This document shows positions 717 through 40,842 of a DNA stretch of 64,000 bases, piece after piece. Each line of letters starts with the position of its first letter. Position 1 is the stretch's first letter. The notes under the pieces were generated by a model. That model was not told the origin of the DNA. It saw only the letters and a program-made list of their open reading frames with translations, and searched no databases. The DNA lies in NCBI GenBank assembly GCA_948567375.1, contig OX419760.1, positions 64,042,911-64,106,910 on the forward strand. The letters are read 5' to 3'. Source of the DNA: Lunularia cruciata (Eukaryota; Streptophyta; Marchantiopsida; Lunulariales; Lunulariaceae). Both the position numbers and the translations under genes were made by a program.

Positions 717-827
717 TGTTGTGCATATATACATTGCTATACAACATACATCACTTTCAACATCATACACTATATAAGCATAACTCACACATAAGTCATA
801 TATGGAATCTAAAGTGCCACAATAATC
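717..827 (-). repeat. B2 terminal segment of copy A
   Basis: This outermost 3' segment repeats the internal segment B1 at 1281-1390: both hold the cataagtcatata/gcataactcacac-type block and end near a gtgcc(a)-ataatc stretch. It lies outside the A2 repeat, where an ordinary LTR element would already have ended. The same arrangement occurs in copy C at 40728-40842. Confidence 0.8.
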
Positions 828-1280: not shown

Positions 1281-1398
1281 ACTATTGTGTGTATATACAT
1301 TGATACAAAACATACATCGGTGTCAACATCATACATTATAGAAGCACAACTCACACATAAGTCATACATAGACTCTAGAGTGCCATAATCGCCCCCCT
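1281..1398 (-). repeat. B1 segment and purine tract of copy A
   Basis: B1 (1281-1390) is the internal twin of B2. Next to it at 1391-1398 lies gcccccct, which is an aggggggc purine tract on the element strand, in the position where plus-strand DNA priming defines the start of a 3' LTR. This places the logical LTR start at B1 rather than at A2. Confidence 0.75.
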
Positions 1399-1579
1399 AG
1401 CTGGTGGTTAGGTCCCTCTAACTCCATATAGCCATCTACTCCAAGTTTATAGTATACCCTATGATGGGCAAAGATTAGAAGGCCAGGTGCTATGGAGCCC
1501 TATCATTACTCTCTGCCTACAATACATACCATATAAAGAATGAACTAGCTATAGATCAAGTACATCTAGGACATAACCA

Positions 1580-2420: not shown

Positions 2421-2479
2421 GTGGTACTTCTTGCACTCTACCATCCTCCCATACATTCAAAAGGTGTTTTCCCTCCAAT

Positions 2480-3660: not shown

Positions 3661-3759
3661 CTCCATCTTTCCTCTCCTATAAGCTTGGGTCCAAGATCTG
3701 GCTCCTAAGTATCCTCTATAATTGTAGTAGGAGTAGAAGACGCGATGACTGGCTGCTAC

Positions 3760-5560: not shown

Positions 5561-7000
5561 ACCAATTGATCTATATGCTATTGCAATGCCTCCTCCAAAC
5601 TCCACAATGGAAAATCCAAGGTGGATAGTATAATCCCACTTGTACTCCAAATCCAAATGATCTCCTCTGGTACTGGAGTATCCTTTGCATGGGCATTCCT
5701 CTCCAACAAGTCACCAGGCCAAGTAACTGCACCATTGAAAGCTAAAATTGATGTTGCCATGGTCCCAAACTATAGTGAGCCAAGACTACCACTACTGAAG
5801 CATATTGGTAAGCAACATACCTGTCCCTCACCAAACTCCCAACTTGGTCTATAGGAGGCTGTCTCCTCCCAATTTTCAATATTGAAACCCATGGGGTATA
5901 ACACTGCTCCTCCAATTTGCACATCATATGACTCAGCTATTGTTGCAATAGCTTGAGCTCCACCATTGAGCTATCAGTCAGATGACCAGGCTGAACCTGG
6001 ACAACAAGCTCTCCACGTGTGATATACTATGTCAAACCACCACCTAGAGATGTTTGGATCTAAAATGGACACCTCTCCACATCGATCTTCCGTAACCGTA
6101 GACCAACTATTGCAGCCTTCTCCAACATAAAGGGCTGTGCACTAGAGTCTAACAAGACTCTTTGTGGTGTATAGACCTTCCCTAAAGGTCCCACCAAGCA
6201 GAAAATCCCCCTCTAGTTATCCAATAGGACAACACTTGGTGTGAACCATGGTCTCTCAAAGGCTAGTCTAGTTGGCAACTCCTCCAGTGTAGCCGTTGTT
6301 GCCTGCCATAAACCATTGGTCACTGAATGGATCCCATGCTCCTCAACCACCTCTGCTCTAGTAGTAGGAACCGGATCATCCCTACTCTCACAAAGCATGG
6401 TAGCCAATTGTAACACTAGGGTTGGGTTAACTCTCAATGTAAACATATCACTCGCTGAAAACAAAGGGCATCGCATAATCAGCTAAGCCGCCTCCAACAT
6501 CATGCTAGACTCAGTCTATGTAGTAGTAGGTGGCTGACTAGCAGGTAGTCTATCATGCACTCCATCACCACCTACTACACTTACATTGGGACGTCTAGGA
6601 GCCATGGATGTCATCAACAATACCTCAGATAGCATGAAAGATTGGGAAAGTCTAACCTATCTCTCAACCTCTCCTCTTTGTGGGTCCAACTCTATTGATG
6701 CTCCTCTAGGCTCTAGAACACGTACTGCACTCCTAGTCACTAATGCAACTATATCCACCTATGTTGCTCCGCACATGAAGTCCAAAGCATCTCTATCACC
6801 AGCATATGAGGTGGAAGCCTTAGCATCCAAATCTGATCTCCTCCGAGCAATGGCCATACTAGCCATTCCCTACTCCAATTGCTCAATCCAAGTAACCATA
6901 GTTGTACAGAGAGTAAGAGCAAGTAATGCACCCTACTATGTGTAGATCCTCTACCACCTCATCCTACATGAACTAGAGCTCCTCTACTACCCTACCATAG
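5560..7000 (-). pseudogene. Protease and linker region, copy A
   Basis: The minus strand matches the 34.0-35.5 kb interval of copy C. 6120-6160 corresponds to the LLDSGAQ-type aspartic protease motif; 6213-6945 corresponds to the long linker that follows the zinc knuckles. The open stretches show the same residue pattern as copy C (for example ELPTRLAFERPWFTPSVVLL). Fossil. Confidence 0.65.
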
Positions 7001-8260
7001 TAGCCCTACCACTTTGTAACTCCAGGTGTTGGTCAAAGCACCGGTCACTAGTGTGACCAAATCTATGGCAATACTCACACTACCTCTATGCTGGCTGTGA
7101 TGCACCAGAGGTATCGGGTCCATTGCCATGAGTACACTCTCTCTTATGGTGAGGTCCACAACAAGTCCAACAAGCAACACCACTACTCATTGGCTGCTGC
7201 TGACCCAAAAATGAAGGTAAGGGTCTAGCTCCATTAAGTCTAGCATTAGGTTCAGGGCTGTCCATCATGTCCTCAAGAACCAATTGGGCATGATGCACTC
7301 TATTGCACTCTAGAAAAATTAATTGTTGTGGATGAGGTCTCCCTACCAAATCTAGATGTCACCACTCTCTCCTCCACCATGTTGAGCTCAATACGCTTAG
7401 CCAAACCAAAGACCATTGCCAAAGTAGGCAAAGTAGCCTGTAATAACATAGCATCATGAACTCTATGTTGCAACTCTGTGTCCAATATCCCATGCCAAAA
7501 CTGGATTGCTTGGGCCTTGGTAGCTCCCTGAGTGAAATTGATCAGCCGCCTCATGCGAGTGTATGCCTCAAGTAGGCTTTCTCCAGCCTTCTGCTGGAAC
7601 TCTTGCAAGCTCCTCAGCTTATCAGTCCCCACTCCCTGGTAGTTCTGCCTCAAACATTGGAAGAACTCTACCATGGGATTAAACCCCAATACCACACCAC
7701 CTCTTGCAGTAGTGCCTCCACTCGTGGTAGCACTAGCTCCAACTACTGCACCTCCACTAGCTCCACCAACACTACTTGAGCTAGAACTTGTGGGTACAAC
7801 TGATCTTCTCTTGGCAACCAAGCCTAAAGTGATAAAGATATAGTTTAGAGACCAATTGTCTCCATAACTCAATCTCCTCCAAATGAGCTCTCCTAAACTC
7901 ATGGTAGTTGTCCATTAGCGGACCCTCCAAATGCTGAAACAACCCCTTCTATGCCATGAAGGGTGTAAACAAAGCTGGGTTCCGCATCTACTATAGATCA
8001 CACCAACTATCAAACTCCTAGATGAAGTCATCCAACTCAATGGTACCCATTGTACCAGAGTAACGTTGAAGGCCTTTGGAGGCTCCATAAATCTCGTCCA
8101 TGTCCCACAACAATAGTGTTGACATGATAAGTGCACTCTCAATTGAATCAGCTCCTATGTCAAACTCCAACTCAAAGTCAATCTCCTCCCTCACAAGGAC
8201 CTAAAATACAAGCTGATATTGAGTGCCCCTCCGAGTAAACCTCCTATGTATTGCAAGGCT
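7000..8260 (-). pseudogene. Gag region with zinc knuckles, copy A
   Basis: The minus-strand frame at 7300-7902 encodes a gag capsid-like segment (GFNPMVEFFQCLRQNYQGVG, SLLEAYTRMRRLINFTQGAT) nearly identical in plan to copy C. It is followed by a Cys-rich segment (ACWTCCGPHHKRECT) near 7140-7190 that matches the first zinc knuckle. Upstream, 7915-8240 matches the gag N-terminal part. Gag forms the particle shell and binds element RNA. Fossil. Confidence 0.8.
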
Positions 8261-9639
8261 AACTCCTCTAGAATCCCCAACAAACTCCGCCGTGACAAAG
8301 TAACCGCAACCCCAACCGCAAACCAGAACTACCAAATGCAACCGCAAACCGCAACCGCAAGTACTCCACCAAGTGCTACCACCAATTGAGCACCACCAAG
8401 TGCCAATACACATGGAACACCACCCACTAATGTAACTCTAACTACACTAGGGGAAAAGGCAACCTATAACTTACCATCACAACATGCACTCTCACGATGT
8501 GCAGATCATCACTTCTTGCCTCACCAAAGAGAAATAAAGGTAGTCCAATTGGTCATCACTCTAGCCTTGCTACCAAGAGCACACTAGAGCACTAATGCTC
8601 TAAATTCAAGGCACCTCACAAAAATGTGGTGCACAAATAGGAAGTAAAGAATGGAGGAGGTCCAATCACAAGAAATCTAAACAAAAACCCTCTATCTCAT
8701 AAAGAAACACAAGACTAACTCTGCCACCATTTGCATTTGACATAAGAGAAGTTTGTATCTACATACTAAGCTACCAAGATCACCAAGAATGGGATCAAAC
8801 TGCCTTTCCTAGCCAAAGCTATAAGTGTATAGATAATAGTGGCACACTCACTAGGACAACAAGTGAGGGTGGACCAGTTGGCTATCACACCAATCTAGGA
8901 ACAAGAGATCTAGGGGTCAAACCCTATTGTGCACAATCTAATAGGATGTGCAAATTTTGCCAAACAATGACCAAGATCTACTCTAAACTAGCTAGCCTCA
9001 TGCCAACAAGCTGGATTGCTGGCCCTTCTAGGCCTTCATAGCATCTCATAGCCCACAACCCTATGCCCAAATGAGACCTTTCTTCTTGCCTCTTTGAACC
9101 CTCTCCAAAGCTGGTGAAACTCCTCCAAATATACAAAACTCCTCTAAATCTGGCAAACCAACAAAACTCCTTTGAATCTAGCCAAAATTTAATGTAAACT
9201 CCAGCAAAAATTTGATGTAAACTCCAGCAAAAACCCGACATAAAATCTGACATAAACCGTAAAGTTGGCTGATTGGCAAATCCTCCGTTAACTCTTCACT
9301 TGAGCCAAATTGAAAAATGGGTTTCTCCAAATCACAAATTCATGAGGATAAATTTCTCAATTTTACTTTGAGCCCAACTCATAGCAAATTGGTCTTGCCT
9401 TCACCTCTTGAGCTCAAATTCACAACCACTACTTGAAATTTGCTTCTTGTATGCTCAAAAATTGGCCTGCACTTCCGCACACTATATGCCTTACTGCCAA
9501 ATCTGCCTCAAGCAATGAGCTTATGCACACCAAGGAAAAGTTGAACTTTGATTGAGCTACCAACAATCCACCGAGCTTGGAGATACCACCAACACTCATA
9601 TTTTTTGCACCTAATTTCTCCTTGATTTCACTTCTCTGA
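8261..9639 (-). other. 5' leader of copy A
   Basis: No coding frame is supported here. Near 8280-8410 lies an accgcaaccgcaa-type low-complexity block, also present just upstream of gag in copy C as gcggttgcg repeats. The remainder is the untranslated leader between terminal repeat and gag. A tRNA-primer-like core (atcagag on the minus strand) lies beside the A1 repeat near 9630-9640. Confidence 0.6.
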
Positions 9640-10091
9640 TGTAATCAGATTGTTTAGAACTCTCAAATCAACTCAACTCAGATCAGTACTTGATTTGTCA
9701 CTCTATAAATTGCCAACAACTAGGCATTAATTACAATCAAGCCACAACCACTCTAGCAAAGAGAACCCAGGTGATGCTCACCGGCCTCTATCCACCATAG
9801 CCAAGAACTCAAAGGCTCAACATCAAAGAATTGAGCTCTCTAGAGCTGCATTTTGAAAGTATACCCCTAGACTCAATATAGGTCTAGAACCCTAACGATC
9901 CTATTGATGGTACACTTGTTAGTGCAAACGGTGCAAAGTGACGGTGTGCCCTATTGTAAATTCAATACCCCAAACACAAAATCTGACCAGCAGAAAGTAG
10001 TCTATGGGAAATTGCTAAAATACCTCTAACTACTATCACTACAACTCCAATGTCTAAGAAATCTAGATGTGACACTACACATGGTGTGACA
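9640..10091 (-). repeat. A1 (5') terminal repeat of copy A
   Basis: About 452 bp, on its own strand starting TGTCACACC and ending GATTACA, matching A2 at 828-1280 and the A repeats of copy C. Unlike A2 it has no B segment next to it; its outer side is directly Z's RT sequence. Its inner side is followed by the primer-site-like atcagag core. Confidence 0.85.
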
Positions 10092-11049
10092 CCTTGGCCT
10101 TCCCAAATACCCTCCACCTTGGTTTACTAACACTATAGTAAATAATGTGATCCAAATACTCAACGTGCATGTGGAAGAGTTTACACTTCCCAAGGTTTTA
10201 TTTGATTCCATGAGATTTCAATCTCATAAATACCTTTATTAAATGTCTCTCATGCTCCTCCATAGTAGTGTTATAGACCAAAATGTCATCAATATGACAC
10301 TAAGTAAAATCTAATCCTATTGGGATAATGTCCATGATCTTGGAACTTGCTATGGAGAGTTCTTTGACCCAAATAGTAAGGGTTTCCATTGATATAGTAC
10401 ATCCTTATTGTGAGGATCAATAACCCAAAATGATATCTTGGACTTATCCTCCTCCCTAACTGGCAACTAATGATATTATGTTCAAAGATCCAAAGAACTT
10501 AAGAGCTTTTCATATCCAATTGCATCAAAGATCTATTATGCTATAAGTAGTGCATATCAATCAGTCCTAGTTGTTGATTGAAAGGATGGTAATCTCCAAA
10601 CATCCACCTATCTATGTAGTTTCCATGCATATCTTTCTTGGTTGGCATCATTGTAGCTAAGTCATACTCTCCATGTGAAATGTCCACTAAACTAGCCTCA
10701 AACAAGTCTTTATTTTAGCTCTAAATCAAGGCTTTCTCCATGTTTGTAGGGATGTAAAGAAATTGGTGTATCAAGGTTTGATTAATCCAAATATGGATCC
10801 TTCAAAGCAATCAAATCCTTCAAACTAAAGGCAAAAGAACTTTTGTAGCTCCTCAAAAACCTCCAAACTCTTTGTCTTTCTCTCTTGTAAGTTATAGTCC
10901 AATATTTGGCTCCCAAATATTTTCTATAATTGATACAGGAGTGGAAGATGCATTGATCAGCAATTATGAGAGAAATAATGTCATGCTCTCCAACCACTAG
11001 AGTCTCCAACCTTAGAGCAAAAAACTCCCTTTGCTCTTGTTGCAAGTTC

Positions 11050-12330
11050 CACATGTTGTTTAGTTAGATCCCAAGTAGACCAAGGGTGTAACCCAAGTAG
11101 ACCATGCTCACTTGGATGTACCCCAAGTAGATCACTCTCACTATTAGTCATTAGCTATGTCCCAAGAATACCATGCCCACTTGGTCCATTGCTCCAAATA
11201 TATATTTAAATTTTCTTGATAGGCACAAAGTGTCCAAGTGTCCAAGTGGTGATGCTTATCAAGTGCATCATATGGTACCCAAATAATCCAAGGCTCACAA
11301 TCCAAGTCAAGTAGTTTAGGTCCATAACCTAACCTAATACTTGATGCTTGGATGCCTCTAACACTACTAAAATGGTGGTGATACTGATATGGAAACATAT
11401 TGCCCACTCTTTCTCATCAACATTGGGCTCTACCAACTATTGTAATTGTGAGTCTTAAACAAGACCAAGATCTCATTCTCAAAAATTATGGGAGTGTAGG
11501 AAATTCATGAGTGTGGCTCTAGGCTGCCCAATAAGGTCCACCATTGCCATAGGTGACCTATCAACCACTAACACTATTTGAGATGGGTGCCCAACATCCA
11601 AAATATCATCAATAATAAGGTAGACTAATCATTGAATATTATCTTATGCACATTCTAAAACCTCTCTAGGTAAGAGGTTCATCCACCAAAGACAAAGATG
11701 ATGAACCCATGATCCCACTTTAGTTGCATCTAGCAAAATGGTTGGTCCCATCCAAGAATGGACTCTATGTGTACTTGCCACCACATGTGTGCAAGAATCA
11801 CCCATGAAAGGGATGTTCTCCAAAACATAAGCTAGAGAAACATCATGGGGGGCTTAGAGATGTTATATTATATATGAGAATGAGGATCTTGTAGTTGGCT
11901 AACACAAGTATGTCCTTGACATGGCCATCAAAAAATGACTAAATGAATGGGATCATATCTCTTTAGATCATACACTCCCAACAAGGAAATGATTGTTGGT
12001 AGAGTCTTTTGGTAACCTCTAACTATTGACATTGGTTATAACTCAAGATACCAATAACTAAGTATGCTATATGATGTAGAGAGATTTACCTAGTAGTCTC
12101 ATCTCTCCACAAAAAAGTAATTTTGAACCCATATGCTTGCCTATAATATCACAATTAGTCCATTATTGATCCCACCAAATACCTCCAATAAGCATACTCC
12201 CTCTACTAAATACTTCCAAGCAATAATGTGGTATCTAAAATTAACAAAGTAATAGACTCTAGAGGCTCATCCTCAAATTGGTCTCATTGTGGTATAAGGG
12301 TTCCAATCCAAGCCTATTGTAACAATTGAT
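11050..12330 (-). pseudogene. Cytosine-5 DNA methyltransferase region, copy Z
   Basis: The minus strand aligns with the copy C methyltransferase. Motif I survives near 12172-12200 (reading LLEVFGG), motif VI near 11817-11843 (reading AYVLENIP), and the motif IV neighbourhood near 11900-11940. The C-terminal side with the GILGT-type spacer lies at 11144-11407. It is the third family member to carry the domain at the same place, between protease and RT. Fossil. Confidence 0.7.
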
Positions 12331-13549
12331 CCACATGATGCTATAATTCCTCATCAAAACTCCATAATAGGACATCCAAAGTAGATGAAACAACCTCACT
12401 TGACTCCAAATCAAAGTGATCTCCTCTAGTATAGGAGTATTCTTTGCATGTGTAATAGGACCATTGAAAATTGAGATTTATGCCATAATTCTTGACCATA
12501 GTGAGCCAAGACTGCCACTATTAAAGTGCACTAGTAGGTGACATAAATGTTCCTCACTTAATTTCCAACTTGGCGTATAGGAAGTTGTCTTGTCCCAAAA
12601 TTCAATGCTAATACCCATGGCGTATAACACTAATCCACCAACTAGCATATCATATGACTATAATAACAATGGCCTAAGCTTTCACCAAAAATCTATTAAT
12701 CTAATGATTGTGTTGAATCTGGATAATGAGCTCACATGTGATGTATTATGTAGAACCATCTCCTAGAGATGTTTATATCTAAAATGAGCACGTCTCTATA
12801 TTAGTCTTCCATAGCCCAAGATCACAACTACAACTTTCCCTAACATAAGAGACTATGCATTAGGGTCTAATAAGACACCCTATGGTAAATATACATTCCT
12901 TGAAGGTCCCACTAAATGGGAAATCCTACTTTGGTTCCAAAAGGACAACTCCATTTGTGAACCTAGCTCTCTCAAATGTAGGTCCAGTTGGTAACTCCTC
13001 CAACCTAGCAATTGTTGCTTGCCACAAGCCATTGGTAGCCAAATGGATCCCATGCTCTTCAACCAAGTGGGCTCCACCATCAACCACACCATCTTTACTC
13101 TCACAAAGTGTGACAACCAATCAATACATTAGAGTTGGATCAACTCCCAATGTAAACATTGGTTGAGAACAAAGAGAAGTGCATAATCAACTAAGCTACC
13201 ACAATATCATGCTAGACTCATTTTTTGTAGTAGATGATGATTGATTAGTATCTAGCCCATCATGCATTCCATCACCACCTACGACACCTGCACTAGGACA
13301 TTTAGGAACCATGGATATTGTATGTAGTACCTTAGAGACTATGAAAGACTAGAGAAGTCTAACTTGTCTAACTTTCTCTCCTCTTTATGTGTCCAACTCC
13401 AACAATACTCCTCTAGGCTTTGGAGCATGTATTTCACTCTTAGTGAATAAGGCAAATTTATCTACCTATGTTAATCTATACATGAAGTCAAGGATATCTC
13501 TATCACCAACATAAGAGGTGGAAGTCTCAACACTTGAATATGATCTCCT

Positions 13550-14620
13550 TTGGACTATAACCATGTTAACCAAGGTTGTATTAGAAGAAAGAGCAAGTAC
13601 ATGGCCCTTACCAAGTGTAGATCCTCTATCACCACCTCATCCTCCATGACTTGGGACTCCTCTATCACTTGCCACAGTAGCCCTTTCACTCCATAACTCC
13701 AAGTAGAGATCAAAGCATTGATCACTAGTATGACCAAATATGTAGCAATGGTCATACTATCTTTGATCTGGTTGTGACATTCTAGAGGTATCATGCCCAC
13801 TAACTTGGATGTACTCTCCCTTATAGTGAGGTCCACCACAAGTCCAACAAGCAACATCATCACCCATTGGTTATTATTGACTAGAAAAGGAGAGTGAGGA
13901 TCTATGTGCATTAAGCCCTCCACTTGTTCATAAGATCGGAGTTGTCCACTCTACCCTCAAAAGCCAATTTGGTGTGGTGTACTCTATTACAATCTAGAAG
14001 AAAAAAAAAACTTAGATGAGGTCTCTCTACAATCCAAATCTCACCTCTCTCCTCTCCACCATGTTGAGCTCAATGCATTGTGCCAAAGTAAAGATCATTG
14101 CTGTAATTATTGAGGTAGCCTATAATAACATAACATCATGTAAGTTGCAATTTTTTGTCTAGTATGCCATACCAAAATTGAATTTCTTGGGCCTCACTAG
14201 CTCCCTAAGTGAGATTGATAAGCCATCTCAAGTGATTATGCCTTGCATATGCTCTTTCTAGCCTTCCATTGTAACTCTTGCAAGCTCTTTAGCTCATCAA
14301 TATACACTCCTTGATCATTCTACCTCAAGCATTAGAAGAACTCAACCATGGAGTAGTTAAAACCCGGTACCACACCACCTCTTACAGTAGTACCTCCACT
14401 TGTAGTAGTTTTATCACCAAATAGTGCACCTCCACTAGATACACCAATGTTACTAGAGCTAGAAATTTTAAGTACTACCAATCTACCTTTAGAAATTGAG
14501 CTTGAAGTGATAGAAATGTAGTTTGGAGATCAATACTAACTCTATAGCTCAATCTCCTCTAAGTGAGCTCTCTTGAACGCATGTTAGTAATCTATCAATG
14601 GACTCACTAAGTGTTGGAAT
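13550..14620 (-). pseudogene. Gag/zinc-knuckle region, copy Z (downstream part)
   Basis: The minus strand matches the gag and knuckle region of copies A and C: MVMVAHQ-type linker at 13555-13923 and capsid-like sequence at about 13990-14560. The gag sequence continues on the far side of the insert at 15311-15600. Heavily worn; identified by alignment, not by an open frame. Confidence 0.6.
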
Positions 14621-15310
14621 TGTAACACCCATTTGTGCATGTGTGTGGTATTGTGATATTTAGCTTGGTATTACAAGTACTTGAGAGATATTATTTATAT
14701 AGAGATAAAGGATGGTTCTACATTAGTCATGATTAGCTAAAGTTAGTTATAGCTAAGATAGAGGGGACCTTACTTTAGAAGAAGTGGAAATGATGAGCAC
14801 CATTATTTTAGATTCTAGTGTGTTGACTTGGTATTATTCCTAGGTATTTGGCTTTGAGGAAAGAATTGAGAACTCGTGGGCCCGCAATCCTTTTTGCTTT
14901 GGATTCTTTTATAGTCCAAGGAAAGCCCATGTAAAGGAATTCTTGACTTAGTGGTTGGGTCAAGATAAGATCATATGCTTAGTGTAATATGCCCATGTGG
15001 ATGGATATTCCTTTATAATTTTTGACTTTACTTGACTTTTAGCCTAGTAACTTGAGTTAATCCAATAATTCATAGCGTTGGTGCGTAACTATTTCACAAG
15101 TATATAAACAAGGGGTGAGGAGGTACTCATCATCCTTTCATTTGCAACTATCTCTCTCTCATTGAGTTCTCTAGTGAGCAATGTCTTGAGTCTTGGAGTA
15201 TTAGCCTTGGAGGAGTATGACGGAGTTGGGGTTCCTTGCCTTCTTAGTCCATAGTGCGCTACCATAATAGCCATCAAAGGTTCATTCTCAGTGAGAGATA
15301 GGCCGGCTCA
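14621..15310 (+). mobile_element. Solo-LTR-like insert within copy Z gag
   Basis: About 690 bp not found in copies A or C interrupts otherwise collinear gag sequence. It starts TGTAACACCC and ends GGCTCA, so it has TG...CA ends. It contains a TATA-like box (tatataaaca at 15101-15110) followed by a pyrimidine-rich stretch, as in an LTR promoter read on the plus strand. The flanks tggaat/tagaac suggest a worn 5-bp target duplication. No internal retroelement sequence is attached, so a solo LTR is the best reading. The donor family is unknown. Confidence 0.65.
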
Positions 15311-17114
15311 TAGAACAAAGTCAAGGTCATGAAGTGTGTGAATAAAGTCAAGGTCCACATGTGCTATAGATCACACCAACTATCAAACTCTTGGATGAAA
15401 TCATCCAAATCAATGGTACTCATTATACTAAAGTAGCACTTGGGGCCTTGTAAATCTTGTCTATATCTCACAACAATAGTGTGGACACATAATATGCACT
15501 CTTAATTGGATTAGCTTTTTTATGAGACTCCAAATTGGAACAATATCTCCTTCACTAGGACTTGAGATACAAGCTGATACCAAGCATCAGTCCATGTAAA
15601 CCCACTATGGAGTGAAAAAAAGAAAATCTCTTCTAGAATCTTTGGAGAACTCTATCTTGACAATGTACCTCAAATTGCAACAATAACCAGCAAGTGCTAC
15701 CACCACCAAACACCACCCATTAATGTAACTCTAACTCTAACAACTACACTATGGGAAAGGGTAACCTATTACCTGCCATCACAACACATGCTCTCACGGT
15801 TTGTTGGTCATCACTTCTTGCCTCATAGAGAAACATGGATAGTTTGACTAATCATCATTCCAACCCACTACTAAGAGCACACCAAAGCACCAATGCTCTA
15901 AATATTATGACACCTTGCATAAACATGATGCACAAATAAGAAGTAGAGAATGGAGGTTCCCAATCATAAGAAATTTTGATGATAACACTCCATCTCACAA
16001 ATCAAAACCGGATTGACTTTATCACCATTTGGCATTTGACATAATCGTAGTGTCTATCTACTCTTATGCTACCAAGATCATCCTCTCTTAGCCAAAGCTA
16101 CATGGGTATATATATGAGTCTACCAATGTCTAGGATAACAAGTGAGTGTGGACCAATTGGTTAAGGCACTAGTCTAGGAACAAGATATCCAAGGTTCAAA
16201 CCTTGTTGCACATAATCTTCAAATATGGGTAGATTTTGCCAAACAACTAGCAAAAATTCAACTAAAATGGCTAACCTCATGCCAACAAGCTAGCTCTTCT
16301 AGGCCTTTGTAGATTCTCTAGTTCATAACCTATACCTCAAAGCCTCTAAATGCCCAATTGAGCTCTTTCTTTTTGCCAATTTGAACCTTTTCCAAATAGG
16401 CTAACCTTGACTAACTTAGTTACCAAATTCCTTTCACCTTTAGATGCCTCTCCATAGTTGATCAATCTCTAAGAATGACTCTACCTTGGAGTTGAGGTCT
16501 CCAAATGGACTACCTTGACTAACTCTACCACCAACTCCTTTCAAGACCTCTAGATGCCTCTCCAACTTTAGTCAACTTCCAATACTTGCTCTACCTAGGG
16601 GTTGAAACTTCCAAGTCAAACTTCCAACAATTCTAGAAGACCTCTACTACAATTGGCTGACCTCCAATTCCTTCACTAAATGCCAAATTAGATCAAATTG
16701 AGGAGATGAGGACTTCCAAATCCCTAAATTAAAGAGATGGTACACGTCTTCCCAAACCCCAAATTACTCCCAAATCTTATGCAAATTTTGATTTTAAGGT
16801 CCAATTTGCAACACCAGTGCCACTAATTTTTCATTACTTGACCCTAATTTCACCTCCTTGTGCTCAAATCAAACCCATTTTTAATGCAAATGAAGACCTA
16901 CATACTTGATTTCAGGAATTCCAACAACATCAAAAACTACAAATTCCAACATTTTTGCATCAAGTCCAACAAATTTATCAAAAAGTACGACAAATAGAGC
17001 AAGGCTTCAACATGAAATCCACTTAATTAAAATTGAACAATGATTGAAGGTACTATCATTTTGCTAGGCTTGGAGATATCACCAACACCTTTAGTTCTTG
17101 TATCCAATTTCATC
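15311..17114 (-). other. Copy Z gag start and leader
   Basis: 15311-15600 still aligns with the gag N-terminal part of copies A and C. The following 1.5 kb corresponds to the leader and has only short, worn matches to the leader of copy A, for example the accaattggttaaggc block near 16160 and the tcaatgctcta block. No open frame is supported. Confidence 0.55.
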
Positions 17115-17556
17115 TATCTTTTTAGTTTTCTTATGTATCAACTCAATTCACACACTCACCTTGGATCAAGATTCAATCATTAAACTCAATACTTTCAACA
17201 ACGTGCATTGATTACAATCAAACTACGCCCACTCTAATATAGGTTCCAAGTGATGCTTGTTGGCCATTGTCCACCATAGCCACAAGCTTGAAAGCTCAAC
17301 ATAAGAGAAGCAAGCTCTTTGGAGTTGCACTTTGAGGGATACCCCTCTAGACTTGACCTAGTGCTCCAATCTTAATATTGATGGTACAAACGATAGTGCT
17401 TGATAGTAGCTCCAATGGTGTAATCATTAGCACTAACACAAAATTTGATCATCATTAACTGGTCTCCAAGAAATTATTGGTATAATTATGATTGCCAAGA
17501 TTAACACTCCAACATCCAAGCAAACTAGCTTCAATGTTGCAAATGTAAGGACAACA
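17115..17556 (-). repeat. 5' terminal (A-type) repeat of copy Z
   Basis: This matches the A1 repeats of A and C at scattered blocks (ccaccatagcca, attgattacaatcaa, gatgctt). On its own strand it begins TGTTGTCC at 17556. The inner boundary is approximate. Confidence 0.65.
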
Positions 17557-30912: not shown

Positions 30913-31368
30913 TGTCACGCCATTTGTAGTTCCGCATCTAGATGCTCGAACATTGGAGTTCCAGTGATGGTAGTTAGAGTTATTCTAGCAGTTTCTCAAG
31001 GACTACTTTCTGACGGTTAGATTTCGTGTTCGGGGTACTGACTTCACGGTGGGGCCCACTGTCACTTTGCACCGTTTGCACCGTCAAGTGTGCCGTCAGC
31101 GGGACCGTTAGGGTTTCAGGGCTAGCTCGAGTCCAGGGGGTATAGTTTCAAAGTGAGCTCCAGAGAGCTCACTTCTCTGATGTTGAGCCTTCGAGTTCCT
31201 GGCTATGGTGGATAGAGGCCGGCGAGCGTCACCTGGATTCTTTATGCTTGAGTGGGTGTGGCTTGACTATAATCAATGCCCAATTGTTGGCAGTTTATAG
31301 AGTGACAGATCAAGTACTGATCTGAGTTGAGTTGAGTTGAGTTGAGAGTGTTAAGCAATCTGATTACA
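30913..31368 (+). repeat. A1 (5') terminal repeat of copy C
   Basis: Starts TGTCACGCC, ends GATTACA, and matches A2 at 40279-40727. No B segment adjoins it on the outer side. Just inside lies atcagag (31368-31374), the core of the initiator-Met-tRNA primer site (TGGTATCAGAGC) used by many plant elements, so primer use is plausible though the match is partial. Confidence 0.9.
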
Positions 31369-32600: not shown

Positions 32601-33980
32601 GTTGGTGTTAGCACGTGGTGGTGTTGGCACTTGGTGGGGTACTTGCGGTTGCGACTTGCGGTTGCAGTTGGTGGTTCGGGTTTGCTGTTGCAGTTATGTG
32701 GTCATGACGGAGTTCTTTGGAGATTCCAGAGGAGTTAGCCCTGCAGTACGCAGTGGGTTTACTCGGAGTGGTGCTCGGTATCAGCCTGTATCTCAGGTCC
32801 CAGTGAGGGAGGAGATTGACTCTGAGTTGGAGTTTGACACAGGAGCTGATTCAGTTGAGAGTGCACTTGGTGTGTCCGCACCGTTGTTGTGGGACATGGA
32901 CGAGATTTATGGGGCCTCCAAAGGCCCAAGGCGTTACTCTGGTACAGTGGGTACCATTGAGTTGGATGACTTCATCCAGGAGTTTGATAGTTGGTGTGAT
33001 CTGCAGTAGATGCGGAACCCGACTTTGTTCACACCCTTCATGGCATGGAAGGGGTTGTTTCAGCACTTGGAGGGTCCACCGATGGATGACTACCATGAGT
33101 TCAGGAGAGCTCATTTGGAAGAGATTGAGTTATGGAGACAGTATTGGTCTCCACACTATGTCTCCATCACTTCAGGCTCGGTGGCCAGCAGTAGATTGGC
33201 TGTACCCACGAGTTCTAGCTCAAGTAGTGTGAGTGGAGCTAGTGGAGGTGCACTAGCTGGAGATAGTGATACTACGAGTGGAGGTACCGCTGTAGGAGGT
33301 GGTGTGGTACCAGGGTTTAACCCCATGGTTGAGTTCTTCCTATGTTTGAGGTAGAACTACCAGGGAGTGCGGACTGACAAGCTGAGGAGCTTGCAGGAGT
33401 TCCAGCGGAAGGCTAGAGAGAGCCTACGTGAGGCATATACTCGCATGAGGCGGTTGATCAGTTTCACTCAGGGAGTTACTGAGGCCCAGGCAGTCCAGTT
33501 TTGGTATGGGATACTGGATAGGGAGTTGCGACGTAGAGTTCGTGATGCTACGTTGTTGCAGGCTACTTCGCCCACTTTGGCAGTAGTCTTTGGTTTGGCT
33601 GAGCATATTGAGTTCAACATGGTGGAGGAGAGAGTGGTGACAGCTGGATTTGGTAGACAGACCTCATCCACGGTTGTGACTTCTTCTAGAGTACAGCAGA
33701 GTGCACCATGCCCAATTGGTTTTCGAGGACAGGGTGGACAGCCCAGATCCTATGGAGCGAGTGGAGGGCCTAGTGGAGTTAGACCCTTATCCTCATTTTT
33801 GGGTCAGCAGCAACTAGTGAGTGGTGGTGTTGCTTGTTGGACTTGTGGTGGACCTCACCATAGGAGAGAGTGTACTCAGAGCAGCGGACCTAATTCCTCT
33901 GGTGCATCACAGCCAGCATAGAGGCAGTGTGAGCACTGCCACAGATTTGGTCACACTAGTGACCGATGTTTTGACCTACA
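32600..33980 (+). pseudogene. Gag region of copy C
   Basis: Frames at about 32600-33010, 33010-33350 and 33367-33921 encode an N-terminal part, a helical segment (MAWKGLFQHLEGPPMDDYHE) and the capsid core (LRSLQEFQRKARESLREAYT, EAQAVQFWYGIL). Two zinc knuckles follow: ACWTCGGPHHRREC near 33831-33873 and a canonical CCHC, QCEHCHRFGHTSDRC, at about 33925-33970. Gag forms the particle and binds RNA. Interrupted; fossil. Confidence 0.82.
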
Positions 33981-33984
33981 CCCG

Positions 33985-35490
33985 GAGTTACGGAGTGGTA
34001 GGGCTGCTATGGCAGGTAGTAGAGGAGCTCCAGTTCATGGAGGACGAGGTGGTAGAGGTGGTGGTAGAGGATCTACACCTAGTAGGGGTGCAGTACCTGC
34101 CCTTACTTCTGACACAGCTATGGCTACTTGGATTGAGCAGTTGGAGCAGAGATTGGCTAGTATGGCTATTGCTCAGAGGAGATCAGATTCGGGTGCTGAG
34201 GCTTCCACCTCATATGCTGGTGATAGAGATGCTTTGGACTTCATGTGCGGAGCAGCACAGGTGGATGCATCTGCAGCAGTGACTAGGAGTGCAGTACGTG
34301 CTCCAGAGCCTAGAGGAGCATCAGTGGAGTTGGACCCACAGAGAGGAGAGGTTGGGAGACAGGTCAGACTTCCCCAATCTTTCACGCTATCTGAGGCATT
34401 GCAGACAACATCCATGGTTCCTAGATGTCCCAGTGCAGGTGTGGTAGGTGGTGATGGAGTACTTGATGGAGTACCTGCTAGTCAGCCACCTGCTACTACA
34501 CAGATTGAGTCTAGCATGATGTTGGGGGCGGCTCAGCTGATTATGCGGCATCCTTTATTTTCAGCCAGTGACATGTTTACATTGGGAGTTGACCCAGCCC
34601 CAATGTTTTGGTTGGCTGCCACGTTGTGTGAGAGTAGGGATGGTGCAGTTCCTACTACTAGAGCAGAGGTGGTTGGTAGTGGAGCTGACTTGGTTGAGGA
34701 GCATGGGATCCGTTCAGCGACCAGTGGTTTATGGCAGGCAGCAGCGGCTAGACTGGAGGAGTTGCCAGCTAGACCGGCCTTTGAGAGAGCGCGGTTTACA
34801 CCTGGTGTTGTCCTATTGGATAACCAGAGGGGGATCTTTCGTTTAGTGGGACCTTCAGGGAAGGTCTAGACACCACAGAGAGTCTTGTTAGACTCTGGTG
34901 CACAGCCCCTTATGTTGGGGAAGGCTGCAGTTGTTGGTCTGGAGTTACGAAAGACCGATGTGGAGAGGTGTCCATTTCAGATCTAGACATCTCTAGGTGG
35001 TGGTTCGACACAGTACATCACACGTGAGGAGCTTGTTGTCCAGGTTCAGCCTGGTCATCCGACTGATAGCTCGGTGGTGAGAGCTCAGGCTATTGCGACG
35101 ATAGCTGAGTCATATGATGTGCTAGTTGGGAGAGCAGTGTTATACCCTATGGGTTTCAGCATTGACTATTGGGAGGAGACAGCCTCTTATAGACCTGGTT
35201 GGCAGTCTGGTGAGGGACGGGTATGTCGCCTACCAGTACGCTTCAATAGTGGTAGTCTTGGCTCACTACAGTCTGGGACCATGGCAACATCAGTTTTAGC
35301 TTTCAGTAGTGCAGTTACTTGGCCTGGTGACTTGTTGGAAGGGAACGCCCATGCAGAGGATACTCCAGTACCAGAGGAGATCAGTCGACTTTGGAGTACG
35401 AGTGGGATTTTTCCATCCACCTTGGATGTTCCATTGTGGAGTTCAGAGGAGGCATTGCAGCAGCATGCAGATCAGTTGGTGTAGCATGCT
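33985..35490 (+). pseudogene. Linker and aspartic protease of copy C
   Basis: 34009-34869 is a long open linker that begins with a Gly/Arg-rich, RGG-like run (GGRGGRGGGRG), a type of sequence that often binds nucleic acid, followed by a sequence with no family I recognise. The protease motif LLDSGAQP lies at about 34885-34908. Sequence to 35484 (YDVLVGRAVLYPMGFSIDYW) fits the C-terminal half of the protease and a joining segment. The methyltransferase frame follows 70 bases later. Fossil. Confidence 0.7.
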
Positions 35491-35553
35491 TGGAGTGGAG
35501 CCTTCGTACCATCAGGGGATGAGTGTGAGGATGAGCCTCCAGAGGCAATTGCT

Positions 35554-36888
35554 TTGACACCTCTGGATACCACACTCATTGCTTGGCAGTACCCAGTAGA
35601 GGGGATATGCCTATTGGAGTTGTTTGGTGGGATCAGCACCGGACTAGTTGTGGTGTTACAGGCGGGTATCCGAGTACAGAGGTACTTGTATGTAGAGAGA
35701 GATGAGACTGCTAGGCGAGTCTCTCTACATCATGTGGCACACTTGGCCTATCGGTATCTGGAGTTATTACCGATGTCAGCAGTTAGAGGTTACCAGAAGG
35801 CCTTACCAAGAGACATTTCCTTATTGGGGGCGCATGACCTAGAGAGACATGGGCCTGTTCACTTGGTGATTTCTGGATGTCCATGTCAAGGACATGCACG
35901 TGCGGGCCGCGGTTTGGGTCTTCAGGATCCTCGTTCTGGTGTGTTTTGGGAGATGTTACGGATATTACAACATCTCCAGGTTCATCAGTCTATTTCTCCA
36001 GCTTACCTTTTGGAGAACGTTCCTTTGTTGGGTGATTTTTGCACTAGAGTGGTGGCGAGTACACATCAGGTCCATTCTTGGATGGGACCTGCTGTATTGT
36101 TAGATGCAGCCAGAGTGGGATCACGGGCTCATCGTCTTCGCCTTTGGTGGACAAACCTCTTACCCAGAGAGGTTCTACAGCGTGCTTATGATGGGATTCA
36201 GCGACTGGACCACATTCTTGTTGATGATATCTTGGATGTTGGGCGTCAGTCTCAGACAGTGGTAGTGGCTGATAGGTCACCTATGGCAGTGGTGAACCTA
36301 GTTGGACAACCTAGAGCTGCATTTCCTACACTCATGAGTTTCCCAGGCTCTCATGCTTTTCAAGAGGGAGGACCTGGACTTGTTTGGGACTCACAGTTAC
36401 AACAGTTGGTGGAGCCCAATGCTGATGAGAGAGAGCGGGCGATGGGTTTTTGCACCGGTATTACCACTGTTCTAGCAGTGTCAGAGGCATCCAGGCGTCA
36501 AGTGTTAGGTCAGGCTATGGACCTGAACTGTTTGACCTGGATTGTGAGCCTTGGTTTGGCAGAGCAGCGTAGGATGCGCTTGATAGGCATCACCACTCGG
36601 ACACTTGTGAGCCCTGTGCCTATCGAGACAATTCAGGCACATGCTGGGGGCGATGGACCGAGTGGACATGGTATTCTTGGGACACATCCAGTAGCTACTA
36701 GGGAGAGTGGTCTACTTGGAGTCCATCCAGGTGAGCGTGGGCTACTTGGATTACACCCTTGGTCCACATGGGATGCAGCCAGAGGATGTATGGAGCTTGC
36801 AGCCAGAGTGGAGGGAGTTTTTCACATAGAGGTTGGGACCTCTAGTGGTCGGGAGCATGACACCATTGCTCCCAAGGGCCCAGTGTAG
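35554..36888 (+). CDS. Cytosine-5 DNA methyltransferase domain within Gypsy pol, copy C
   Basis: An open stretch of 444 codons. C5-methyltransferase motifs appear in canonical order: motif I LLELFGGISTG (residues 20-30, cofactor binding); motif II YVERDETARRV (46-56); motif IV GCPCQGHARAGRGLGL (109-124) with the catalytic Cys of PCQ at 111; motif VI LENVP (153-157); motif VIII RVGSRAHRLRLWWTNL (187-202); motif IX RERAMGF (293-299); motif X RRQVLGQAMDLNCLTWI (314-330). The order is unpermuted and the short span between VIII and IX suggests a small target-recognition region, recalling DNMT3-like enzymes, though I cannot place the clade. Residues 366-420 form a Gly/His/Pro-rich spacer before RT. 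In other proteins this fold moves a methyl group from S-adenosylmethionine to cytosine C5. It sits between protease and RT. Activity is not shown. Confidence 0.87.
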   Translation: MTPLDTTLIAWQYPVEGICLLELFGGISTGLVVVLQAGIRVQRYLYVERDETARRVSLHHVAHLAYRYLELLPMSAVRGYQKALPRDISLLGAHDLERHGPVHLVISGCPCQGHARAGRGLGLQDPRSGVFWEMLRILQHLQVHQSISPAYLLENVPLLGDFCTRVVASTHQVHSWMGPAVLLDAARVGSRAHRLRLWWTNLLPREVLQRAYDGIQRLDHILVDDILDVGRQSQTVVVADRSPMAVVNLVGQPRAAFPTLMSFPGSHAFQEGGPGLVWDSQLQQLVEPNADERERAMGFCTGITTVLAVSEASRRQVLGQAMDLNCLTWIVSLGLAEQRRMRLIGITTRTLVSPVPIETIQAHAGGDGPSGHGILGTHPVATRESGLLGVHPGERGLLGLHPWSTWDAARGCMELAARVEGVFHIEVGTSSGREHDTIAPKGPV

Positions 36889-36899
36889 CAGCCAGTCAG

Positions 36900-38010: not shown

Positions 38011-38025
38011 CACACTGATTGGAGT

Positions 38026-40002
38026 ATGTTGGGGCTTGGAGCGGTGCTCACCCAGCATGATGATGAGGAGAAGGAGTTTGTGGTGGCCTATGCTAGTCGC
38101 TCCAACAATTCAGCGGAGGCGAAGTATAGTTCATATGAGGGAGAGTGCTTGGCAGCAGTTTGGGCAGTAGCACATTTCCGATGTTACTTGTTTGGTAACC
38201 CCTTCACTCTCATCACTGATCATCAGCCGCTGAAGTGGTTGATGGAGTCCGACAAGCTTTCAAGGAAGCTTGCACGATGGGCTCTGATTTTACAGGAGTA
38301 TGATTTCACGGTTGTTCACAGACCTGGAGTGGTGAACCGTGATGCAGATGGGTTGAGTAGAAACCCATGTCCCAGCCAGCAGGATCAGACCGGAGCACGT
38401 TGGCATGGTGAGACAGATGAGGAGATGGTGCGAGGTTGGCATGCATCGGCCTTTCTGTGTATATTTGCAGAGACTTTGGTGGTATCTCTCTCAGTGCATA
38501 CAGGAGGAGTTATTGAGGTCACAGATCCAGAGAGTGAAGATATTGGTACAGTTCAGCGAGACATTCATGATGATGTCTTAGTGATGGACTATCTTTGCAC
38601 TGGTGTTGTGAGTGGCACAGTTGGGGCCAAGGAGAGAGACCGTGTTCTTCAGCGAGCCAGACGGTTCAGATTGGAGGGTAGACACCTTTTGCGTGTATGG
38701 GAGGATGGTAGAGTGCGAGTAGTACCACTTCCATCACAGAGACCACAGTTGGTCCGTCATGCTCATGAGGAGCTAGGACATTTTGGAGTAAAGCGTACAT
38801 ATAGCTTACTCCTGAGTCATTATTGGTGGCGCGGTATGCAGACCGAGGTACAGCAGTTTGCTGCCAGATGTGTGGTTTGTGACCGAGTTAGAGCATCATT
38901 CAATGCTCCTACGCCACAGTTACACCCATTACCTATCATGGGATTGGGTTACCGTTGGAGTTTGGACTTCGCCAGACCTTTACCGCTGACTGTGAGACAT
39001 CATCGGTATGTTTTGGTGATGGTGGAGCACTTCTCCAAGTGGATTGAGTTGGTGGCACTTCCTGACAAGTCTAGTGAAGGGACAGCTTACTCGTTCCTGG
39101 ATCGAGTTCTTAGTCATTTTGGTGCACCAGCTGAGGTTTTGACTGATTGGGGTACAGAGTTCTTGGGAGAGTTTCAGGTCTTGTGTGACAAGGCTTTGAT
39201 TGATCATCGTACTACATCCCAAGATCACCCTGAGGCAGATGGCTTAGCAAAGAGAGTGGTTCAGATGGTGAAGAGAGGATTGCAAAAGTATGGTTTGCAG
39301 AGAGGCCACTTGGGAGATTGGGATCTCCAGTTACCTTGGTTGGCCATGGGCTATCGGTTCAGCCGGCAAGCTTCCTTAGCATCCTTCTCTCCATACTTTC
39401 TACTCTATGGACAAGATCCAGATTTACCTGCAGCCATTCGTCGAGATGATACTGTAGTTTTGGACTTGGATGACCCCGATGTATGGATGAGCGCATATTC
39501 TCAGCGGGCAGAGATCTTTCGGAGAGTGATGCCAATGGCCTTTGAGAACTTGGCGATTGCTCAGCATAGAGATACTTTACGCTATGCTACCATTCGAGGA
39601 GGAGGTTATAGACCCTCGATCCATCGATTTCATCCAGGCGACTATGTATATCTACAGCAGACAGCACCAACGACACTTGATGTTTCTACATGCCGCACTA
39701 TCTTGAGAGTGCGCGAGGTTTTGCCATCTGGAGTCCTTGTGTTAGAAGGACGTGATGGTGTTGTTTGGAAGGATCATGTCCGCAATTGTGTGCCATGCCA
39801 CCTTCCAAACATTGATGGTACTATGGACCCAAGCTTGGCACTTGTACGTGCAGGCTTGAGGTGTATGTTATGTGGCTCTTCTGGTGGAGCTGCTACTATG
39901 TTAGTGTGTGATAGCTGTTCGAGAGGATGGCATATGGCATGTATGACTCCTGCTCTCACGGTGGTTCCTCAGGGACAGTGGTTATGTCCTAGATGTACTT
40001 GA
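38026..40002 (+). CDS. RNase H, integrase and C-terminal PHD finger, copy C
   Basis: A 658-codon open stretch. Residues 1-113 are RNase H (VAYASRSNNSAEAKYSSYEG, LITDHQPLKWLMES, GVVNRDADGLSRNP). The integrase zinc-binding part is at about 240-290 (HAHEELGHFGVKRTY ... CVVCDRV). The catalytic core spans about 308-415 (WSLDFARPLPL, YVLVMVEHFSKWIELVALPD, APAEVLTDWGTEFLGEF). The rest of integrase extends to about 600 (FHPGDYVYLQ). Residues 612-658 are a PHD finger. RNase H removes RNA from the hybrid and integrase joins cDNA to the host genome. Part of the fossil element; this stretch is long and open. Confidence 0.88.
   Translation: MLGLGAVLTQHDDEEKEFVVAYASRSNNSAEAKYSSYEGECLAAVWAVAHFRCYLFGNPFTLITDHQPLKWLMESDKLSRKLARWALILQEYDFTVVHRPGVVNRDADGLSRNPCPSQQDQTGARWHGETDEEMVRGWHASAFLCIFAETLVVSLSVHTGGVIEVTDPESEDIGTVQRDIHDDVLVMDYLCTGVVSGTVGAKERDRVLQRARRFRLEGRHLLRVWEDGRVRVVPLPSQRPQLVRHAHEELGHFGVKRTYSLLLSHYWWRGMQTEVQQFAARCVVCDRVRASFNAPTPQLHPLPIMGLGYRWSLDFARPLPLTVRHHRYVLVMVEHFSKWIELVALPDKSSEGTAYSFLDRVLSHFGAPAEVLTDWGTEFLGEFQVLCDKALIDHRTTSQDHPEADGLAKRVVQMVKRGLQKYGLQRGHLGDWDLQLPWLAMGYRFSRQASLASFSPYFLLYGQDPDLPAAIRRDDTVVLDLDDPDVWMSAYSQRAEIFRRVMPMAFENLAIAQHRDTLRYATIRGGGYRPSIHRFHPGDYVYLQQTAPTTLDVSTCRTILRVREVLPSGVLVLEGRDGVVWKDHVRNCVPCHLPNIDGTMDPSLALVRAGLRCMLCGSSGGAATMLVCDSCSRGWHMACMTPALTVVPQGQWLCPRCT
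39859..39999 (+). other. PHD finger at integrase C-terminus, copy C
   Basis: The 47 residues carry the full C4HC3 zinc pattern: CMLC, then CDSC 11 residues later, then C-x4-H-x2-C (CSRGWHMAC), then CPRC 14 residues later, with the Trp two residues before the last Cys pair (WLCPRC). The frame stops one residue after it, so it is the end of the protein. PHD fingers of known proteins read the histone H3 tail; here that is inference. Confidence 0.88.
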
Positions 40003-40160
40003 CTTATAGCTAGTTCATTCTTTATATGGTATAGATTGCAGACAGGCGACTAACGATGGGGCTCCATAGCACCCGGCCTCCTGATCTTTGCCCATTAGAG
40101 GGTATACCATATACTTAGAGTAGATGGCTATTTGGAGTTAGAGGGACCTAACCGCCAGCT

Positions 40161-40168: not shown

Positions 40169-40278
40169 GATTGTGGCACTTTAGAGTCTATGTATGACTT
40201 ATGTGTGAGTTGTGCTTTTATAGTGTATGATGTTGACAGCGATGTATGTTGTGTAGCGATGTATATATGCACGACAGC
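40169..40278 (+). repeat. B1 segment of copy C
   Basis: Contains tttagagtctatgtatgac, a TATA-like box (ttttatagtg at 40216-40225) and ends gcacgacagc right at the A2 start. It repeats as B2 outside A2. B1 could serve as the U3 promoter part of a B+A LTR. Confidence 0.8.
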
Positions 40279-40727
40279 TGTCACGCCATTTGTAGTTCCG
40301 CATCTAGATGCTCGGACACTGGAGTTCCAATGATGGTAGTTAGAGTTATTCTAGCAGTTTCTCAGGGACTACTTTCTGACGGTTAGATTTTGTGTTCAGG
40401 GTACTGACTTGACGGTGGGGCCCACCGTCACTTTGCACCGTTTGCACTGTCAAGTGTGCCGTCAGCGGGACCGTTAGGGTTTCAGGGCTAGCTTGAGTCC
40501 AGGGGGTATAGTTTCAAAGTGAGCTCCAGAGAGCTCACTTCTCTGATGTTGAGCCTTCGAGTTCCTGGCTATGGTGGATAGAGGCCGGCGAGCGTCACCT
40601 AGATTCTCTATGCTTGAGTGGGTGTGGCTTGACTGTAATCAGTGCCCAGTTGTTGGCAGTTTATAGAGTGACAGATCAAGTACTGATCTGAGTTGAGTTG
40701 AGTTGAGAGTGTTAAGCAATCTGATTA
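40279..40727 (+). repeat. A2 terminal repeat of copy C
   Basis: 449 bp; matches A1 with about fifteen substitutions and one 5-base (gttga) unit fewer. It is flanked by B1 and B2. Confidence 0.92.
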
Positions 40728-40842
40728 TTGTGGCACTTTAGAGTCACAATAATCTATGTATGACTTATGTGTGAGTTGTGCTTTTATAGTGTATGATGTT
40801 GACAGCGATGTATGTTGTGTAGCAATGTATATACGTACGACA
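40728..40842 (+). repeat. B2 terminal segment of copy C
   Basis: A second copy of B1 outside A2, ending TACGACA, which mirrors the TGTC start of A1. It carries an extra cacaataatc relative to B1, forming a 10-bp inverted repeat with gattattgtg at the A2/B2 joint. A TATA-like box recurs at 40782-40790. The short target duplication follows directly. Confidence 0.85.

What the first reader, a model, noticed from the sequence alone, without database searches (positions are those of the whole stretch)
35554..36888. Cytosine-5 DNA methyltransferase domain built into a Gypsy pol gene
Seen: a 444-codon frame between protease and RT carries methyltransferase motifs I, II, IV (PCQ), VI (ENV), VIII, IX and X in canonical order. 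Known: LTR elements bearing cytosine methyltransferases have been reported in a charophyte alga and in dinoflagellates (from memory). A land-plant-like genomic setting with the domain between protease and RT would extend that. Inference: the element may have used it to methylate its own cDNA or the insertion site, influencing silencing or tolerance by the host.
Basis: partly seen in the sequence, partly recalled or inferred. Interest (0 to 1): 0.92.

Follow-up and report, generated by a model that had tools for sequence, protein, structure and literature searches.

The report
Jumping gene with a DNA-methylating enzyme
A jumping gene in this plant genome (likely a liverwort's) carries its own cytosine-methyltransferase domain, found again in at least 94 other near-identical full-length copies in the same genome, and it would probably use the enzyme to mark its own new DNA copies as they are made or inserted.

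Summary

A UAG follows the domain in 20 of 20 copies examined, in the TMV-type leaky context in 19, so DNMT ends a Gag-protease frame and is probably made at Gag level. The integrase frame ends in a PHD finger. The ends are split direct repeats (A1...B1-A2-B2), as in tyrosine-recombinase elements, yet have exact 4-bp target duplications in 29 of 33 readable copies.

A Dnmt3 in a Gypsy element with DIRS-like repeats is published for the alga Klebsormidium (PMC5890265), so this is a land-plant variant of a known kind. Activity and role are untested.

The parts
30913..31366 (+). A1, left terminal repeat of element A (454 bp, begins TGTCACG)
   Evidence: 96% to A2 by BLASTN; left end fixed by the empty-site paralogue at about 21001
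32704..36888 (+). Frame 1: Gag (CCHC-like knuckles), retropepsin-like LLDSGAQPLMLG, DNMT; ends at TAG 36886-36888. Broken by earlier in-frame stops in this copy; the start ATG is assumed
   Evidence: other copies keep this frame open for up to 1428-1448 codons
35554..36885 (+). DNMT3-type cytosine-5 methyltransferase domain and its tail
36886..36894 (+). UAG CAG CCA: conserved stop in a TMV-type (CAR YYA) leaky context; readthrough predicted, not measured
   Evidence: TAG in 20 of 20 copies, CAR YYA in 19 of 20; context from PMC2754532 and PMC2194720
36901..38007 (+). Reverse transcriptase (with two further stops in this copy)
   Evidence: RVT_1 E 1e-24 on 37399-38007; tblastn
38026..40002 (+). 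RNase H, integrase H2C2 zinc domain, integrase core
   Evidence: RT_RNaseH 8.7e-32, Integrase_H2C2 2.3e-17, rve 3e-11
39862..39996 (+). PHD finger at the C-terminus of the integrase frame
   Evidence: PF00628 E 3.9e-10, residues 613-657 of that frame
40171..40278 (+). B1, first B repeat, just after a purine-rich run (AGGGGGGCGA)
   Evidence: B1/B2 2.8% different
40279..40727 (+). A2, second A repeat
   Evidence: 15 differences from A1 in 449 sites, 14 of them transitions
40728..40842 (+). B2, right terminal repeat, ends GACA; GATA (or AGATA) target duplication flanks the element
717..10091 (-). Copy B: older copy with the same A1...B1-A2-B2 plan and an AAGG duplication, nested in copy C
   Evidence: A1/A2 15.4% different
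10097..17450 (-). Copy C: oldest copy, decayed; continues at 1-712. Its far end lies outside the window and its left limit is approximate

Best explanation
The frame at 35554-36888 is the DNMT3-type cytosine-5 methyltransferase domain of a Gypsy-type retrotransposon (30913-40842), placed at the end of a Gag-protease-DNMT frame, followed by a conserved and probably leaky UAG stop and then by RT-RNase H-integrase-PHD, and it would most likely methylate the element's own newly made DNA. Shown: the domain and its fold class (by sequence profile and predicted model), the order of parts, the multi-copy family, the conserved UAG, the split direct repeats and the 4-bp target duplications. Inferred: lying before the leaky stop, it would be made in Gag-like amounts and enter the particle with Gag, where it could methylate cDNA (probably at CG, as two related Symbiodinium DIRS enzymes do in yeast), so that new copies arrive already marked. 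Inferred too: integrase opens circular or tandem cDNA at the B|A junction, which would give A1...B1-A2-B2 insertions with short target duplications, and the PHD finger would steer integrase to chromatin with a given histone mark.
For: Domain. In 30 aligned relatives the near-invariant residues include PCQ, the Glu-Asn of ENV and the Arg-x-x-Trp-Thr-Asn stretch. PCQ is kept in 20 of 20 genome copies and ENV in 19 of 20, with no frameshift. UAG in 20 of 20, CAR YYA in 19 of 20, no ATG at 36901 in the 19 other copies. Of 38 Gag-side relatives with DNMT that I counted, 23 end 67-162 residues after DNMT without RT. Ends: 29 exact 4-bp duplications in 33 readable of 40 copies examined. Related enzymes of Symbiodinium DIRS elements methylate CG in yeast (PMC5890265 section 10). 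In 20 copies, shared DNMT variants show fewer replacement changes (N/S 0.39 of expectation, transitions) and no stops, against 0.59 and 6 stops for private ones.
Against: No activity was tested, and the Klebsormidium Gypsy enzyme showed none in yeast. Selection is not proved: in-window dN/dS is 0.37-0.44 but the wrong frame +1 gives 0.47-0.56; the 20-copy comparison has p 0.20 and a sample chosen by protein score. Of 38 Gag-side relatives 8 run on into RT without a stop and 7 end within 12 residues of DNMT, and protein ends can be contig ends. Inserted copies decay at CHG as much as at CG, which points to host methylation and shows no separate mark of the element's own enzyme. P0168, P0171 and P0180 showed no PHD match. 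Copies with one or three B units also fit recombination after insertion.
Confidence: 0.55

Rival explanations
1. The enzyme is active but serves restraint: it marks the new copy and insertion site so that the element falls silent early, sparing the host and so the element.
For: Copies show heavy C-to-T decay at CG and CHG sites, so they are silenced-type DNA; de Mendoza et al. discuss this role (PMC5890265 section 11).
Against: The decay pattern is what host CG and CHG enzymes alone would give; at least 95 copies is not strong restraint.
Confidence: 0.17
2. The domain methylates RNA (for instance the element's RNA or its primer tRNA), not DNA.
For: C5 enzymes of the DNMT2 type act on tRNA; de Mendoza et al. 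raise RNA as a target for the LINE enzymes.
Against: The profile is nearest DNMT3A (7.2e-26) and far from DNMT2 (2.3e-5).
Confidence: 0.08
3. The domain is kept as a nucleic-acid-binding or structural part of the Gag-protease product, with catalysis unimportant.
For: It lies on the Gag side of the stop; no activity is known for the Gypsy type.
Against: Catalytic motifs are the near-invariant columns in 30 relatives and PCQ is kept in 20 of 20 copies.
Confidence: 0.08
4. The UAG is an ordinary end of frame and RT-integrase is made another way (re-initiation, splicing or a separate RNA), so DNMT dosage says nothing about packaging.
For: Some Marchantia gene models join DNMT and RT in one protein (P0104, P0110), which may reflect predicted splicing; readthrough was not measured.
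Against: Same frame on both sides, no ATG at 36901 in 19 of 20 copies and a TMV-type context in 19 of 20.
Confidence: 0.25

Closest known systems
KnitGypsy-Dnmt3 of the charophyte Klebsormidium nitens (de Mendoza et al. 2018, PMC5890265)
   Same: Dnmt3-type, unrearranged DNMT in an LTR Gypsy element; repeats arranged as in DIRS elements with Gypsy domains (legend of Fig. 4c)
   Different: Alga, fewer copies than Symbiodinium's; text found no mention of PHD, target site or bryophyte elements.
SymbioDIRS-Dnmt3 of dinoflagellates (PMC5890265)
   Same: Dnmt3 domain in Pol and A/B split repeats (passages); CG methylation shown in yeast
   Different: Tyrosine recombinase instead of a DDE integrase; another retrotransposon class
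PAT-type DIRS elements (PMC4157794)
   Same: Split direct repeats A1-B1-A2-B2 (passages)
   Different: They use a tyrosine recombinase; here rve integrase and 4-bp duplications
Chromoviruses (recalled)
   Same: Gypsy element with a chromatin-type domain at the end of integrase
   Different: PHD finger, no chromodomain match
TMV-type leaky UAG (PMC2754532)
   Same: UAG CAR YYA between an upstream product and the polymerase part
   Different: Readthrough not measured here; the DNMT lies upstream of the stop

Membership tests
Ty3/Gypsy LTR retrotransposon | RT-RNase H-integrase order with Gypsy-type domains | tested here: met
Ty3/Gypsy LTR retrotransposon | TG...CA ends and a short target duplication made by a DDE integrase | tested here: met
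   29 exact 4-bp duplications in 33 readable copies, ends TGTC...GACA
Ty3/Gypsy LTR retrotransposon | Two equal long terminal repeats | tested here: not met
   Left end A1, right end B1-A2-B2 in 30 of 40 copies; so Gypsy-type by domains, not a canonical LTR element
Ty3/Gypsy LTR retrotransposon | tRNA primer site after the left repeat | tested here: inconclusive
   By eye, CATCAGAGAAG follows A1 in copies A and B; no clear TGG start; no tool run
KnitGypsy-Dnmt3 | Dnmt3-type DNMT in a Gypsy-type element with DIRS-like repeats | tested here: met
   against the paper's description
KnitGypsy-Dnmt3 | Sequence homology to the Klebsormidium elements | not tested
   No Klebsormidium name among the listed hits; sequences not in hand
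DIRS/PAT elements | Split direct repeats A1-B1-A2-B2 | tested here: met
DIRS/PAT elements | Tyrosine recombinase, no DDE integrase | tested here: not met
   Integrase_H2C2 and rve found; no tyrosine recombinase among the Pfam hits of the frames scanned
DNMT3-type C5-methyltransferase | Profile closest to DNMT3, motifs in unrearranged order | tested here: met
DNMT3-type C5-methyltransferase | De novo cytosine methylation | not testable with these tools
   needs expression
DRM (plant rearranged DNMT3) | Rearranged motif order | tested here: not met
   Motif I before IV and VI; the host's own rearranged gene is L030
Chromovirus | Chromodomain at the integrase C-terminus | tested here: not met
   PHD finger there, no chromodomain among Pfam hits

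The most novel reading that the evidence does not exclude
A land-plant retrotransposon lineage that both writes and reads epigenetic marks: a leaky stop gives it a DNMT3 writer at Gag dosage in the particle, a PHD reader (in one relative also a Tudor domain) rides on its integrase, and that integrase opens circular cDNA at an internal junction, giving split repeats with short target duplications: a Gypsy engine on a DIRS chassis.
Probability: 0.3. Interest if true: 0.88.

Novelty: new variant of a known kind. Interest (0 to 1): 0.7.

Why it matters
It takes element-encoded DNA methylation from one charophyte alga into land plants at high copy number, in a group that includes the genetic model Marchantia, so the open question of what a transposon gains from its own methyltransferase becomes testable. 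The conserved UAG suggests an answer on dosage (writer with Gag, not with Pol), and the split repeats with 4-bp duplications show that this repeat order does not require a tyrosine recombinase. Some bryophyte proteins that UniRef names cytosine methyltransferase (for example P0100, P0011, P0017) look like frames of such elements.

Tried and rejected
Host identity: no tRNA and no Rfam match at gathering scores in the window. Bryophyte or liverwort is inferred from the relatives and from eight contigs of 60-85 Mb (contig lengths); that liverworts have 8-9 chromosomes is recalled.

Recent capture from the host's own DNMT3: not supported, path lengths over 4.4 to any retro-DNMT; but the host rows are exon pieces and the tool warns that long branches meet there.

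In-window dN/dS: inconclusive, since frame +1 gives nearly the same ratio. Twenty-copy N/S test: right direction, biased sample, p 0.20. A sample by a DNA query next to DNMT was asked for and a pattern count of copies; none was answered. So the copy number is a lower bound.

Viral-contig scan: 8 loci, 28-42% identity over short stretches, not pursued. Paper searches for a bryophyte retrotransposon DNMT listed none that I could recognise from titles and abstract starts; the library holds open-licence papers only and supplements were not open to me. (split direct repeats with Gypsy and integrase) was seen as a listing, and one of its papers in passages.

Full report

THE ELEMENT. The domain matches between 32704 and 40002 lie in one frame, which holds nine internal stops in this copy, counting the shared one at 36886. 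Downstream lie RVT_1, RNase H, Integrase_H2C2, rve and a PHD finger. Upstream the translation shows CCHC-like knuckles and LLDSGAQPLMLG, a retropepsin-like signature. The upstream pieces of this copy that I scanned gave no protease or Gag family; of relatives with the same signature, P0025 reaches a Pfam protease cut-off and P0102 a weaker match.

ENDS. Element A is nested in another Gypsy element whose second copy in the window keeps the empty site: 19363-21001 matches 29276-30912 and 20997-23148 matches 40842-42993. That puts the ends at 30913 and about 40842, with GATA (or AGATA) on both sides. The ends are not two LTRs. The left end is A1 (454 bp); the right end is B1-A2-B2. Copy B (717-10091, minus) has the same plan and an AAGG duplication. 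I examined both ends of 40 of the 95 genome matches (ranks 2 to 41 by score). The right end reads B-A-B in 30, B in 2, B-A-B-A-B in 1 and is partial, complex or missing in 7. Both ends could be read together in 33, and 29 of these have an exact 4-bp duplication flush with TGTC...GACA. Of the other four, one lacks B2, one is complex, one differs at one base of four and one has none. Split direct repeats in the order A1-B1-A2-B2 mark PAT elements (PMC4157794, passages), which use tyrosine recombinases; here the same repeats go with a DDE integrase and short duplications.

COPY NUMBER AND AGE. The host genome (565.8 Mb, 74 contigs) gave 95 scored matches over 443-444 residues at 94-100% identity out of 15,444 first-look candidates, the window's own included; a lower bound. 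A PF00145 search scored 123 of 2,161 candidates. Among the best are host genes: a DNMT3-like gene in two exon pieces (L029), a second one (L032), a rearranged DRM-like frame (L030) and a further C5-methyltransferase exon (L031) (names by my reading of the translations). A1 and A2 differ by a median of 1.3% in 27 of the 40 copies (0.4-3.3%), with 142 transitions to 19 transversions. These copies were picked by closeness to the query, so the median is not that of the family. In the DNMT region of 20 copies there are 19 private C-to-T changes over 82 CG positions, 37 over 157 CHG and 20 over 463 CHH, or 1.16%, 1.18% and 0.22% per position and copy: inserted copies have probably been methylated at CG and CHG. 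CpG observed/expected is 0.43 in A, 0.19 in B and 0.09 in C, falling with age.

THE STOP AFTER DNMT. Directly after the 444 residues stands TAG in 20 of 20 copies (L009-L028, the window's own included) and in copy B, followed by CAR YYA in 19 of 20. CAR YYA after UAG is reported as essential for readthrough of tobacco mosaic virus RNA (PMC2754532, passages; PMC2194720, passages). The ATG at 36901 in the window is ACG in the other 19 copies. In 4 of 20 copies no further stop follows within the 1,500 bases fetched; in the rest later stops occur, as expected of decaying copies. Among 38 relatives with DNMT after an N-terminal Gag or protease part (my count on the list, class II and Copia rows left out), 23 end 67-162 residues after DNMT without RT, 8 run on into RT and 7 end within 12 residues of it. 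So DNMT is on the Gag side of a probable leaky stop. This is a prediction; no readthrough was measured.

RELATIVES. Three searches gave 97 of 7,996 scored, 252 of 7,999 with 120 listed and 56 of 7,988. Named ones are Calypogeia fissa, Sphagnum species, Marchantia polymorpha and paleacea, and Riccia sorocarpa; most others bear no species name. In a tree of 86 DNMT domains (those of 191 proteins in hand with a single match of 270 or more model positions; 48 of unknown placement, the placement labels being mine) the window falls in a 19-row clade with Calypogeia, Marchantia and Sphagnum rows, support 100/100. Three placements occur: before RT (window, bryophytes, P0168, P0169, P0171, P0174), between RNase H and integrase (P0172, P0175, P0177, P0180, P0182, P0185, P0186 and others), and in Copia between the Gag zinc knuckle and integrase (P0189, P0191). 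In an RT tree of 19 of 31 rows with RT, the ten RT-first rows form one clade, 100/100. In the DNMT tree 13 of 14 rows so labelled fall together with 2 unplaced rows (99/94), P0179 outside. So the placement follows the lineage; whether the DNMT moved once or was captured twice is open, and the Copia pair lies far off. A PHD finger ends the integrase part in members of both Gypsy groups: the window and a Marchantia model (P0069) on one side, P0172, P0175, P0177, P0182, P0185 and P0186 on the other. P0168, P0171 and P0180 showed none.

HOW IT MIGHT WORK. Committed reading: the DNMT is made with Gag, is packaged, and methylates the element's own new DNA, probably at CG; integrase joins circular or tandem cDNA to the target after opening it at a B|A junction, and the PHD finger helps choose the site. 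The first half rests on domain identity, dosage logic and the yeast activity of Symbiodinium DIRS enzymes (PMC5890265 section 10); the Klebsormidium Gypsy enzyme showed none, which its authors call inconclusive. The second half rests on the repeat order: ordinary reverse transcription between a primer site after A1 and a purine tract before B1 would make B-A units, and cutting tandem units between B and A gives A...B-A-B. Copies with one or three units fit, but so does later recombination. Purifying selection on DNMT is suggested by the conserved catalytic columns and the direction, not proved.

KNOWN OR NEW. de Mendoza et al. 2018 (abstract, sections 9-11 and passages seen) described KnitGypsy-Dnmt3 with a Dnmt3 domain in the Pol frame and DIRS-like repeats. 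A 2025 paper mentions DNMT3 in Copia and DIRS elements of streptophytes and dinoflagellates (PMC12344493, passages). I recognised no report of it in bryophytes in the listings, over an open-licence library only. New here, as far as those searches go: bryophyte range and copy number, the conserved UAG, the PHD finger, exact target duplications with split repeats, and two Gypsy placements. Hence 'new variant of a known kind'.

Noticed in passing
P0175 (metagenome relative): After integrase and the PHD finger comes a PTM/DIR17-like Tudor domain (PF21743, E 6e-8): a second possible chromatin reader.
   Followed up: no
P0189, P0191: Copia polyproteins (RVT_2) with a DNMT domain between the Gag zinc knuckle and integrase; far from the Gypsy DNMTs in the tree.
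   Followed up: partly
window 4146-4982 (minus strand, copy B): A tandem duplication of about 420 bp inside the DNMT of copy B, 95% alike.
   Followed up: no
window 19363-23148 and 29276-30912 plus 40842-42993: The Gypsy element that element A struck is present twice, 90.5-92.4% alike over the shared stretches; RT and RNase H at 26761-28660, no match of the DNMT relatives to its pol beyond single hits.
   Followed up: partly
window 40717-40760: At the A2-B2 junction of element A, ATTATTGTG...CACAATAAT forms a 9-bp inverted repeat that copy B lacks (by eye).
   Followed up: no
L029, L030, L031, L032: The host keeps its own DNMT3-like genes, a rearranged DRM-like frame and a further C5-methyltransferase exon.
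   Followed up: partly
window 44818-45126; 56003-56269 and 62458-62703: Tandem-like and dispersed repeats of unknown kind.
   Followed up: no
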